Below the pieces are notes generated by a model that searched no databases, was not told the origin of the DNA, and saw only the letters and a program-made list of their open reading frames with translations. A DNA stretch of 64,000 bases from contig NZ_CP038228.1 in assembly GCF_006838285.1 (NCBI RefSeq), positions 1,612,001-1,676,000 of the forward strand, read 5' to 3'. Source of the stretch: Xanthomonas translucens pv. cerealis. GTDB taxonomy: Bacteria > Pseudomonadota > Gammaproteobacteria > Xanthomonadales > Xanthomonadaceae. Below are positions 36,818 to 43,309 of the stretch, piece by piece (position 1 is the first letter of the stretch; the number at the start of each line of letters is the position of its first letter). Made by a program: the position numbers and the translations under genes.

Positions 36818-36833
36818 TGGCATATGGCTTGCT
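36818..36833 (+). promoter_or_regulatory. sigma54 promoter of the glycan operon
   Basis: TGGCAT (36818-36823), spacer ATGGC, TTGCT (36829-36833), a close match with exact spacing. Transcription would start near 36844, about 58 bases before the aminotransferase gene. The 208 bases between fleQ and this element hold no gene I can support. Confidence 0.82.
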
Positions 36834-36901
36834 TGCAGAACAGGAACCACGTCGCAACGCGTCGCGCCGCGGATTTTCCACACGCACCCATGCAGGCCAC
36901 C

Positions 36902-38083
36902 ATGCCCATTCCCGTCACCAGCCCGCTGCTGCCTCCCCTGGACGAGTTCGTGCCGTACCTGGAGAAGATCTGGAGCAGCCGCATCCTGACCAATGGCGGC
37001 CAAATGCACCAGGCGCTGGAAAAGGCGCTGGCGGAGTACCTGGGCGTCGGCCATCTGGCGCTGTTGACCAACGGCACGCTGGCCTTGCTCACCGCGCTGC
37101 AGGCGCTGCGCGTCACCGGCGAGGTAATTACCACGCCCTACTCGTTCGTGGCCACCGCGCACGCGCTGCTTTGGAAAGGGATCAAGCCGGTGTTCGTCGA
37201 TATCGACCCGGTCACCCTGAACCTGGATCCGCACAAGATCGAGGCGGCGATCACCCCGCAGACCACCGCGATCATGCCGGTGCACTGCTACGGCACGCCC
37301 TGCGACACCACCGCGATCGAGCGCATCGCCGACACCTACAACCTCAAGGTGATCTACGACGCCGCGCACGCCTTCGGGGTCAAGGACGACGGCGGTTCGA
37401 TCCTGCGCCACGGCGACCTCAGCGTGCTCAGCTTTCACGCCACCAAGGTGTTCAACACCTTCGAGGGCGGTGCCATCGTCTGCCCCGACGCCAAGACCTA
37501 CCAGCGCATCAGCCGCTTGAAGAACTTCGGCTTCGTCGACGAGACCACGGTAGTGGCCACCGGCATCAACGGCAAGATGAGCGAAGTGAACGCCGCCTTC
37601 GGCCTGCTGCAACTGCAGCACATCGATAGCGCGCTGGCGCAACGCCGCGAGATCGACGCCGACTACCGGCGACGCCTGGCGCAGGTCCCCGGCGTCCGTT
37701 GCCTGGCGCCGCGCTCGCCGGAAATGGCCAACTACGCCTCGTTCCCGATCCTGATCGAGGACGACTTTCCGCTGACCCGCGACGGCCTGCATCAACTGAT
37801 GCGCGAGCACGAGATCCTGGTGCGCCGCTACTTCTATCCGCTGATCAGCGATTTCCCGATGTACCGCGGCCTGCCCTCGGCCGCGCCGGCCGGATTGCCG
37901 GTCGCGCGACAGATGGCAGAACGGGTGCTGTGCCTGCCGATCTATCCGGGCCTGAGCGACGGCGACGTGCAGACCATCGCCGGCCTGATCGCCAGCGCCG
38001 GCAGCGCAAGTTCAACCGCTGCAAAGACCGGCCGTCGGCTCCCGACGGCCCCCTCCTCCGACCACCCCGTGGAACAAGAATGA
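36902..38083 (+). CDS. DegT/DnrJ/EryC1-type sugar nucleotide aminotransferase, VioA-like
   Basis: The 393-residue PLP enzyme begins PVTSPLLPPLDEFVPYLEKIW and carries the lysine that binds PLP at Lys182 in SFHATKVFNTFEGGAI. That motif is typical of VioA/FdtB-type enzymes, which put an amino group on C4 or C3 of dTDP-4-keto or 3-keto-6-deoxyglucose. The product is therefore probably dTDP-viosamine or a relative. ATG 36902 follows AGG; ATG 36890 is an alternative. The gene leads an operon whose next eight genes are coupled, mostly by ATGA overlaps. The exact sugar cannot be fixed from sequence. Confidence 0.8.
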   Translation: MPIPVTSPLLPPLDEFVPYLEKIWSSRILTNGGQMHQALEKALAEYLGVGHLALLTNGTLALLTALQALRVTGEVITTPYSFVATAHALLWKGIKPVFVDIDPVTLNLDPHKIEAAITPQTTAIMPVHCYGTPCDTTAIERIADTYNLKVIYDAAHAFGVKDDGGSILRHGDLSVLSFHATKVFNTFEGGAIVCPDAKTYQRISRLKNFGFVDETTVVATGINGKMSEVNAAFGLLQLQHIDSALAQRREIDADYRRRLAQVPGVRCLAPRSPEMANYASFPILIEDDFPLTRDGLHQLMREHEILVRRYFYPLISDFPMYRGLPSAAPAGLPVARQMAERVLCLPIYPGLSDGDVQTIAGLIASAGSASSTAAKTGRRLPTAPSSDHPVEQE

Positions 38084-38304
38084 GCCAAGCAACGTTTATC
38101 GAGAATTTCCTGTCGGCGACCGATTTCCAGACTCCGGTCGAGGTGACGACGGACACCGTGCTGCGCGAGCTTCCCGAATGGGATTCGCTGGCCGCACTCG
38201 GTGTGATCGTGATGTTCGACATGGAATACGGCAAGACCATCACCGGCGAACACCTGGCCGCCGCCGTCACCGTCGGCGACCTCTACCAGCTGACCGAGGC
38301 GTAG
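38080..38304 (+). CDS. Acyl carrier protein
   Basis: The 74-residue acidic protein has the phosphopantetheine attachment motif EWDSLAALG with Ser36. It overlaps the aminotransferase gene by four bases. As a dedicated ACP in a sugar operon it most likely carries the acyl chain built by the KASIII and reductases encoded next, for transfer to the amino sugar. Confidence 0.85.
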   Translation: MSQATFIENFLSATDFQTPVEVTTDTVLRELPEWDSLAALGVIVMFDMEYGKTITGEHLAAAVTVGDLYQLTEA

Positions 38305-41530: not shown

Positions 41531-41555
41531 CCACGCGCGCAGGACGCCTTTCCGC

Positions 41556-42695
41556 ATGACCCGCCACGCTCTCGACGCCGAGCACTACATCAGCCCGCAG
41601 AGCCTGCGCCTGGAACAGCAGCGGCTGTTCGGCAAGCTGTGGATCTTCGTCGGCTTCGCCTCAATGGTGCGCGAGCGCAACCAGTTCTTCGCGCGTCAGG
41701 TGGCCGGCGTGCCGGTGCTGGTGCAGCGCACCGAGGCCGGCATCCGCGCTTTCCTCAATCAGTGCCCGCACCGGCAGTCGGCGATCCAGACCGAATCGCA
41801 CGGCAAGCGCCCGCTGGTCTGTCCGTACCACGCCTGGTCGTTCGGCGCCGAGGGCGAGCTGCGCGGGCTGCCCAACTCCGGCCTATACCAATTCACCGCC
41901 GAGGAGAAGGCCGGGATCTGCCTGACCAAGCTGCATCTGCAGCAGGTCGGCGAATTGCTGTTCGTGAACATGGCCGAGCAGCCGCTGCCGCTGCAAGAGC
42001 AGTTCGCGCCGGCGTTCCTTGAGAACCTGCGCGCGGCGGCCTCGCACGTGGATGCGCAATTGATCTACAGCTGCCACCGGGTGCGCTACAACTGGAAACT
42101 CAACATGGAGAACGTGAAGGACTACAACCATATCCCGTTCATCCATCCCAAGACCTTCAATCCGCTGATGACCGCCGCGCCCAAGCCGTCGGCGCACGTC
42201 GAGCGGCTGGCCGAGGTGCCCTCGGCGATCGAGCAGCTGCTGCAGGGGCGCGCGCGCGCGCCGCTGCACGCGCTGAGCTTTCCGGCCAAGGCCGAGATCG
42301 CGGCGCAGGACCACTGGTACCGCCCACTGTGCGAGCGCTACGGCGAGGATTCGGCGTTTTACAACTGGTTCCTGTACCCGAATGTGAACTTCTACAGCGT
42401 GCGCGGCGACTCCTTTGTGCTGCAGCAGTACGATCCGGTTTCGCCGCACGAGACCGACTATCACCTGTGGGTGGCGACCGCCCGGCGCAGGAGCGAGCGC
42501 ACCGACTTCACCGCCCTGCTGAGCACGCTGATGCGCATCGAGCACCAGGTGATCGCCGAGGACACGGCGGTGCTGGAACGGCTGCAGGCCGGCCTGGGTG
42601 CGCATTCGCGCCCCTTCATGCACGGCGACTACGAGACCGAGCTGGTGCGCCAGCATCTGTGGTACCGCGCCAACGTGCTGGAGCAACCGGCATGA
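41556..42695 (+). CDS. Rieske-type non-heme iron oxygenase, alpha-subunit-like
   Basis: The 379-residue protein has a Rieske 2Fe-2S site (Cys70, His72, Cys89, His92 in CPHR and CPYHAW) and a catalytic domain with the mononuclear iron ligands in NVKDYNHIPFIH (about 185-200). It belongs to the ring-hydroxylating oxygenase fold and should hydroxylate or demethylate a small organic group using a reductase from elsewhere. In a flagellin sugar operon its substrate is probably the acyl decoration or its precursor. ATG 41556 is the start. It overlaps the next gene by four bases. Confidence 0.85.
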   Translation: MTRHALDAEHYISPQSLRLEQQRLFGKLWIFVGFASMVRERNQFFARQVAGVPVLVQRTEAGIRAFLNQCPHRQSAIQTESHGKRPLVCPYHAWSFGAEGELRGLPNSGLYQFTAEEKAGICLTKLHLQQVGELLFVNMAEQPLPLQEQFAPAFLENLRAAASHVDAQLIYSCHRVRYNWKLNMENVKDYNHIPFIHPKTFNPLMTAAPKPSAHVERLAEVPSAIEQLLQGRARAPLHALSFPAKAEIAAQDHWYRPLCERYGEDSAFYNWFLYPNVNFYSVRGDSFVLQQYDPVSPHETDYHLWVATARRRSERTDFTALLSTLMRIEHQVIAEDTAVLERLQAGLGAHSRPFMHGDYETELVRQHLWYRANVLEQPA

Positions 42696-43309
42696 AGACG
42701 CTGGTGCTGATCGGCCTGGGTCATGCGCTGGAGCAGGCGCAACGCACCGCGCAAGCCTGCGGCCTGGCGCACGTGGGCATTGCCCTGGAATCGCCGGACC
42801 GCTACAACTTCGACCTGAACGCCCTGCACGCCAGCCATCCGCCCGCGGCAACCAACGTGTTCGTCGCCATGGACGAACGCGCAGTGAACCAGTCGCGGCA
42901 CAGGCTGCTCGCCGACGTGCGCCTGGCCGGCTACGGCAGCATCGACCTGGTGTGGCCGCAGGCGCACATCGATGCCGGCGTGCGCCTGCTCGGCAACGTG
43001 CATGTGGGACCGGGCTGCAACCTGGCGGCCGGCAGCAACATCGGCGCCGGCAGCTGGCTAGAACGCCAGGTGATGGTCGAACAGGACGTGCGCGTCGGCG
43101 CCTGCGTCACCCTGAATGCCGGCGTGCACCTTGGCCGCGGCACACAGATCGGCCAGGGTAGCACCCTGGGCGGCGGCAGCATGACCCGCAGCGGCGCCAG
43201 GATCGGCCGGCACTGCGAATGGTTGCTGCCCGGCACCCTGCCGGATGTGCTGCAGGACCGCTGCTTCTACGACGCACTGATGCCTGGTGGAGCCCGGATC
43301 CTGCGTTGA
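42692..43309 (+). CDS. Second hexapeptide-repeat (NeuD-like) acyltransferase
   Basis: The 205-residue protein has an N-terminal Rossmann-like part (TLVLIGLGHALEQAQ) and a C-terminal beta-helix (about 95-190: AGVRLLGNVHVGPGCNLAAGSNIGAG). It is shorter and more divergent than the NeuD-like enzyme two genes upstream, and the N-terminal motif is weaker. It is the last gene of the coupled operon and likely adds or moves a second acyl group. The following 600 bases have no clear gene. Confidence 0.75.
   Translation: MKTLVLIGLGHALEQAQRTAQACGLAHVGIALESPDRYNFDLNALHASHPPAATNVFVAMDERAVNQSRHRLLADVRLAGYGSIDLVWPQAHIDAGVRLLGNVHVGPGCNLAAGSNIGAGSWLERQVMVEQDVRVGACVTLNAGVHLGRGTQIGQGSTLGGGSMTRSGARIGRHCEWLLPGTLPDVLQDRCFYDALMPGGARILR

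What the first reader, a model, noticed from the sequence alone, without database searches (positions are those of the whole stretch)
36818..43309. Flagellin-glycan operon joining an amino-sugar enzyme, a mini fatty-acid pathway and a Rieske oxygenase
Eight genes coupled by overlaps or a one-base gap encode a VioA-like aminotransferase, ACP, KASIII, two SDRs, two hexapeptide acyltransferases and a Rieske oxygenase. The viosamine islands of Pseudomonas syringae combine an aminotransferase, ACP and KASIII to make an acylated viosamine on flagellin. The Rieske oxygenase, second SDR and second acyltransferase suggest a further hydroxylated or otherwise modified acyl group. The sugar may be new.
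Basis: partly seen in the sequence, partly recalled or inferred. Interest (0 to 1): 0.85.

Follow-up and report, generated by a model that had tools for sequence, protein, structure and literature searches.

The report
Flagellin sugar operon in a Xanthomonas
This is a set of genes that a plant-associated Xanthomonas probably uses to build and decorate an amino sugar for its flagellum; the kind is already described in a related species, but what its oxygen-inserting enzyme and that enzyme's constant partner protein do is still open.

Summary
The operon is real. Eight tightly packed genes (36902-43309) lie between fleQ and a glycosyltransferase/fliE inside the flagellar cluster of a Xanthomonas near X. 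sacchari, behind an exact sigma-54 box at 36817-36833. It is the counterpart of the published ten-gene gigX flagellin-glycosylation island of X. oryzae (gene list recalled; paper not held), so the system is not new. (1) In 49 relatives the front (vioA, acp, KASIII) is stable while the middle is exchanged: two Rieske types about 33% alike occupy the same slot, with hybrids and one tandem pair. The Rieske gene is followed by gene 8 in 75 of 76 cases. (2) Gene 8, read as a second acyltransferase, is a NeuD/VioB-fold paralogue without a conserved catalytic histidine and without the GNPA motif (0 of 65), so probably no ordinary acyltransferase. Best reading: viosamine is N-acylated with a 3-hydroxybutyryl-type group, and the Rieske oxygenase, helped by gene 8, oxidises that product. 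Substrate, final sugar and flagellin as target were not tested here.

The parts
36817..36833 (+). sigma-54 (RpoN) box TTGGCATATGGCTTGCT, 69 bases before the second possible vioA start codon
   Evidence: exact match; a box of this kind upstream of vioA in 57 of 62 sequences, repeats included
36902..38083 (+). gene 1, VioA-like sugar aminotransferase (start 36890 also possible)
   Evidence: Pfam PF01041 E 6.9e-101; 73% identical to a B. glumae protein annotated VioA; no NCBIfam equivalog cut-off passed
38080..38304 (+). gene 2, small acyl carrier protein
   Evidence: PP-binding 17.8 bits, below the 20.8 cut-off; DSL motif
38306..39346 (+). gene 3, ketoacyl-ACP synthase III
   Evidence: Pfam; Cys, His and Asn motifs aligned with 4efi
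39343..40110 (+). gene 4, short-chain dehydrogenase/reductase 1
   Evidence: Pfam; TGxxxGxG and YxxxK motifs
40107..40886 (+). gene 5, short-chain dehydrogenase/reductase 2 (43% identical to gene 4)
40883..41530 (+). gene 6, NeuD/VioB-type N-acyltransferase
   Evidence: TIGR03570 167.7 bits, cut-off 160.8; best solved relative VioB 7txp; His142 in 67 of 67; GNPA in 56 of 56
41556..42695 (+). gene 7, Rieske non-haem iron oxygenase (type A)
   Evidence: Pfam Rieske and Ring_hydroxyl_A; cluster and iron-site residues identical in 76 of 76 rows; model and fold match
42692..43309 (+). gene 8, NeuD/VioB-fold left-handed beta-helix protein, probably not an ordinary acyltransferase
   Evidence: homology to gene 6, Gln131 in the His column, GNPA 0 of 65, model and fold match
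43918..45228 (+). FkbM-type methyltransferase, GC 47% against 68% for the window
   Evidence: Pfam PF05050; GC
46281..49940 (+). large glycosyltransferase with GT2 domains (true start probably later than 46281), candidate transfer enzyme
   Evidence: Pfam; found next to the island in relatives

Best explanation
A gigX/viosamine-type flagellin-glycosylation operon, switched on with the flagellum by RpoN2/FleQ. Genes 2-5 make a short 3-hydroxyacyl (3-hydroxybutyryl-type) group on a dedicated ACP. Gene 1 makes dTDP-viosamine (4-amino-4,6-dideoxyglucose). Gene 6 puts the acyl group on the amine. The Rieske oxygenase (gene 7), together with gene 8, then oxidises the product; I think hydroxylation of the acyl chain is most likely. 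Gene 8 probably holds the nucleotide sugar for the oxygenase rather than transferring another acyl group. A methyltransferase and the large glycosyltransferase finish the sugar and transfer it to flagellin. Shown here: gene content and order, promoter box, catalytic residues, near-strict Rieske/gene-8 coupling, exchange of cassettes. Inferred: all substrates, the reaction order, flagellin as target in this strain. Rough sub-scores: flagellin-glycan operon of the gigX kind 0.9; acylated viosamine 0.75; Rieske acts on the acyl part 0.45; gene 8 as non-catalytic partner 0.5.
For: Place between fleQ and fliE with rpoN2, fliC, fliD and fliS upstream; sigma-54 box; same order in relatives; reviews on gigX in X. 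oryzae; P. syringae route to N-(3-hydroxybutyryl)-viosamine needing vioA, vioB, vioT and vioR; intact KASIII, SDR, acyltransferase and Rieske residues; Rieske followed by gene 8 in 75 of 76; acyl genes, Rieske and gene 8 kept together in L028 and L031 where the aminotransferase is only 28% and 33% alike; gene 8 data.
Against: No expression, protein or glycan data. Gene 1 passes no NCBIfam equivalog cut-off, so viosamine itself is inferred. Seven of 65 and 3 of 41 gene 8 relatives do have His in the catalytic column, 19 of 65 have one three residues before, and two other His columns are frequent in the close set (31 and 35 of 41). B. glumae pBGF3 has a vioA island with a distant Rieske (23%) and no gene 8 seen after it. 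Rieske/gene-8 pairs also occur away from the island (type C), so the pair need not be tied to acyl-viosamine. No reductase gene for the oxygenase lies in the operon.
Confidence: 0.65

Rival explanations
1. The Rieske oxygenase hydroxylates the sugar ring or its 6-methyl group, and gene 8 is a working acyltransferase that acylates the new hydroxyl.
Against: No conserved His in that column, GNPA motif in 0 of 65 against 56 of 56 of gene 6.
Confidence: 0.2
2. The Rieske/gene-8 pair is an exchangeable cassette that tailors the glycan differently in different strains (types A and B catalyse different steps); it is not a fixed step of one pathway.
For: Types about 33% alike are exchanged at one slot, with hybrids and one tandem; a third type lies outside the island in 13 genomes of the genus.
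Against: Within the genus sample all 18 genomes that have the island KASIII also have an island Rieske, which suggests a required step; both types keep the same iron-site residues.
Confidence: 0.2
3. The product goes to LPS or another surface glycan, not to flagellin.
For: Acylated 4-amino sugars are known from O-antigens (general knowledge).
Against: Position in the flagellar cluster and sigma-54 box; gigX reports.
Confidence: 0.05

Closest known systems
gigX1-gigX10 flagellin-glycosylation island of Xanthomonas oryzae pv. oryzae (Yu et al. 2018, Mol Plant Pathol 19:579; seen only through passages of PMC8657755 and PMC6859632)
   Same: RpoN2/FleQ-controlled island in the flagellar cluster; the gene list as I recall it from the abstract (transaminase, ACP, KASIII, reductase, dehydrogenase, acetyltransferase, ring-hydroxylating oxygenase, hypothetical protein, methyltransferase, glycosyltransferase) matches genes 1-8 plus the methyltransferase and glycosyltransferase in order.
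   Different: Here a low-GC methyltransferase and a transposase-domain ORF sit between gene 8 and the glycosyltransferase. Which Rieske type X. oryzae has was not determined.
Viosamine island of Pseudomonas syringae pv. tabaci 6605 (PMC3927599; abstract and parts 1 and 2 of section 2 seen)
   Same: vioA, acp, KASIII (vioS), reductase (vioR), acyltransferase (vioB), large glycosyltransferase (vioT), methyltransferase.
   Different: The paper lists no Rieske oxygenase and no gene 8 in that island; it has one reductase.
Glycosylation islands of Pseudomonas between flgL and fliC (L025, L026)
   Same: vioA, acp, KASIII, one SDR, vioB-like, Rieske type A (68-69%), gene 8, FkbM, glycosyltransferase in the same order; clusters named P. 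aeruginosa hold a 69% Rieske.
   Different: One SDR; different place in the flagellar cluster. The P. aeruginosa PAK record was not read.
NeuD/VioB/PerB acyltransferases
   Same: Gene 6 is a member; gene 8 shares the fold over its whole length.
   Different: Gene 8 lacks the conserved His and the GNPA motif.

Membership tests
gigX / viosamine-type flagellin glycosylation island | vioA, acp, KASIII, reductase, vioB-like acyltransferase and large glycosyltransferase in the flagellar cluster | tested here: met
gigX / viosamine-type flagellin glycosylation island | control by sigma-54/FleQ | tested here: inconclusive
   exact box, widely kept; expression not testable
gigX / viosamine-type flagellin glycosylation island | genes needed for the glycan on flagellin | not testable with these tools
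   needs mutants and mass spectrometry
VioA (dTDP-viosamine aminotransferase) | curated equivalog score or tested substrate | tested here: inconclusive
   family matched, best NCBIfam DesI 295.5 of 650 bits; 73% to a protein annotated VioA
Rieske ring-hydroxylating-type oxygenase, catalytic subunit | Rieske Cys/His ligands and His/His/Asp iron site | tested here: met
   C70, H72, C89, H92, D189, H192, H197, D336 in 76 of 76 rows; fold match
Rieske ring-hydroxylating-type oxygenase, catalytic subunit | reductase partner and substrate | not tested
   none in the operon; the rest of the genome was not searched for one
NeuD/VioB acyltransferase: gene 6 | TIGR03570 above cut-off, conserved catalytic His, GNPA motif | tested here: met
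   167.7 against 160.8 bits; His142 67 of 67; GNPA 56 of 56
NeuD/VioB acyltransferase: gene 8 | TIGR03570 above cut-off, conserved catalytic His, GNPA motif | tested here: not met
   61.2 against 160.8 bits; Gln131 in the His column, His in 7 of 65 and 3 of 41; GNPA 0 of 65

The most novel reading that the evidence does not exclude
A Rieske oxygenase and an inactive NeuD-like sugar-binding protein form a two-part enzyme that hydroxylates an N-acylated nucleotide sugar, and Xanthomonas and Pseudomonas exchange divergent versions of this cassette at one slot, so that closely related strains wear chemically different flagellar sugars. A Rieske oxygenase acting on a nucleotide-linked acyl sugar with a pseudo-acyltransferase as helper would be new to my knowledge; the listings of searches show no paper on it in the held library.
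Probability: 0.3. Interest if true: 0.65.

Novelty: new member of a known kind. Interest (0 to 1): 0.4.

Why it matters
Flagellin glycans affect virulence and recognition by plant hosts (abstract of PMC3927599; passages of PMC8364246). The island itself is known, but I found no account of what its Rieske step does. The exchange of Rieske/gene-8 types at one slot gives a natural comparison that mass spectrometry of flagellin could read directly, and gene 8 is a clean candidate for a pseudoenzyme that serves an oxygenase.

Tried and rejected
A true Rieske/gene-8 fusion (P0085, and the long ORF P0010 named near P. aeruginosa sequences) was considered and dropped: the joint in P0085 reads as out-of-frame sequence, so it says nothing about physical contact.

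Class-wide surveys found only the window's own genome (1 of 369 each) at the thresholds used; the sample holds few relatives, so this does not measure rarity. The genome-contig scan (26 loci) was made with a type A profile and brought in type B only as the second pair of L030.

A sigma-54 box at 46367-46383 near the glycosyltransferase start looked like a second promoter, but a box occurs there in only 1 of 41 relatives, so it may be chance or private to this strain. The first promoter scan over relatives used a faulty pattern and gave 1 of 62; it was corrected.

The first Pfam call on the type C locus used wrong frames for the Rieske and gene 8; one search used the right ones.

Ten loci of L017-L032 lie on the same contigs as ten of L112-L131 (equal contig lengths), so the 76 Rieske genes include 11 repeats; without them the Rieske/gene-8 count is 64 of 65 and the promoter count 47 of 52. 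Dropped by length: 1 Rieske (L033), 2 gene 8 and 1 gene 6. Four of 65 loci were left out of the promoter count for want of a vioA orthologue of 60% or of enough upstream sequence (L019, L028, L031, L085).

Literature: searches were seen as listings; only the passages or sections named in the report were read. Arora 2001 and 2004 and Yu 2018 are not held; Li 2015 was not looked up. Yu 2018 is known from citing reviews and recall, Li 2015 from its title in two reference lists.

Full report
WHAT IS THERE. The window is G000:C1:1612001-1676000 of a 4.6 Mb genome in one contig; the nearest named relatives of its Rieske and gene 8 proteins are from Xanthomonas sacchari (94% and 89%). Between fleQ (35119-36609) and fliE (50106-50579) lie eight genes on the + strand, 36902-43309, then an FkbM methyltransferase (43918-45228), an ORF with a DDE transposase domain (45751-46320) and a large glycosyltransferase (46281-49940). 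The seven junctions have spacings -4, +1, -4, -4, -4, +25 and -4. Upstream, one response-regulator gene separates rpoN2 (33328-34725) from fleQ, with fliC, fliD and fliS before them.

REGULATION. An exact sigma-54 box lies at 36817-36833 (8 matches with up to one mismatch in the window, mean 1.48 expected, largest shuffle 4; two of the eight are exact). A box of this kind stands upstream of vioA in 57 of 62 sequences, the window and ten repeats included (misses: L025, L026, L094, L096, L131); letter shuffles of the same stretches have one in 56 of 3100. This fits the RpoN2/FleQ control described for X. oryzae.

COUPLING. Rieske is followed by gene 8 in 75 of 76 cases; the exception, L088, ends at a contig end. 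This holds for type A, type B and the off-island type C (8 of 8 loci examined). B. glumae pBGF3 has a vioA island with a distant Rieske (23%) and no gene 8 seen after it, so a Rieske step in such islands can occur without gene 8.

DISTRIBUTION AND EXCHANGE (type names A, B and C are mine). Genus sample of 20: KASIII in 18, a Rieske in the same 18: 13 type A (79-100% to the window) and 5 type B without type A (31-36%), these five in the island slot. Family sample: 50 of 395 genomes, 3 of 54 genera, pass the threshold: 21 with type A, 30 with type B, one of them with both. Of the 49 island loci fetched (all but the window's own): SDR-a/vioB-a with Rieske A 16; SDR-b/vioB-b with Rieske B 25; SDR-a/vioB-a with Rieske B 4; a single SDR-b with vioB-b and Rieske A 3; A and B in tandem 1 (L120, same contig as L030). 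vioA and acp are found in 48 of 49 (not in L085, where fliD runs into a KASIII piece), and KASIII keeps 70-98% identity. In the tree B plus C group with support 100/100, the A side with 94/91; long branches meet there, so the depth is unsure.

HOW IT WORKS. For P. syringae pv. tabaci: without vioA, vioB, vioT or vioR flagellin carries only rhamnose; the sugar is N-(3-hydroxy-1-oxobutyl)-viosamine, 2-O-methylated by VioM (PMC3927599, parts read). By analogy genes 1-6 make the same kind of sugar here. The Rieske is the added step. Two facts point to the acyl part: the acyl genes, Rieske and gene 8 stay together in L028 and L031, whose aminotransferases are only 28% and 33% alike (same broad family), and the nearest folds include a monooxygenase of carnitine, a C4 hydroxy-acid derivative (a weak lead). 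The hybrids and the type C pair, near arginyl-tRNA-protein transferase, Band_7 and VanY genes, argue that Rieske and gene 8 are a unit of their own. That gene 8 holds the nucleotide sugar for the oxygenase is inference.

KNOWN OR NEW. Reviews say that gigX1-gigX10 of X. oryzae are controlled by RpoN2/FleQ and that the cluster determines flagellin glycosylation, with MALDI-TOF used (passages). The gene list in order is my recall of the abstract (paper not held) and matches genes 1-8, the methyltransferase and the glycosyltransferase. A 2015 title reports a putative acetyltransferase (PXO_00987) required for flagellin glycosylation in X. oryzae (reference lists). So the operon is a new member of a known kind. 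The listings of searches show no paper on the Rieske step of such islands.

LIMITS.

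Noticed in passing
G000:C1:473607-474725 (L046), outside the window: A second Rieske gene (33% to gene 7) followed by a gene 8 relative (29%), near arginyl-tRNA-protein transferase, Band_7 and VanY genes; the same type is found in 13 genomes of the genus. Function unexplained.
   Followed up: partly
L120:8024-11549 (same contig as L030): Type A and type B Rieske/gene-8 pairs stand in tandem in one island of Xanthomonas sp. 3793.
   Followed up: partly
window 43310-46383: FkbM methyltransferase with GC 47% and a transposase-domain ORF between gene 8 and the glycosyltransferase; relatives 70-77% alike occur in other islands, in L083, L103, L126 and L131 on the opposite strand, so this slot looks exchanged too.
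   Followed up: partly
window 46367-46383: A second exact sigma-54 box close to the glycosyltransferase start; a box is there in only 1 of 41 relatives.
   Followed up: yes
L132 (B. glumae pBGF3): A plasmid carries flagellin, fliD and a vioA island with a Rieske only 23% alike and two KASIII-like stretches: perhaps a separate recruitment of a Rieske enzyme.
   Followed up: partly
   Followed up: no
L019; proteins P0062, P0077, P0164, P0172: Records labelled Massilia, Wolbachia, Hamiltonella and Rickettsia hold relatives of the island genes. For L019 (up to 94% alike) mis-binning is likely; the others are unexplained.
   Followed up: no
L085: fliD runs directly into a KASIII piece; rpoN2, fleQ, vioA and acp are not found: a deletion or an assembly error.
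   Followed up: no
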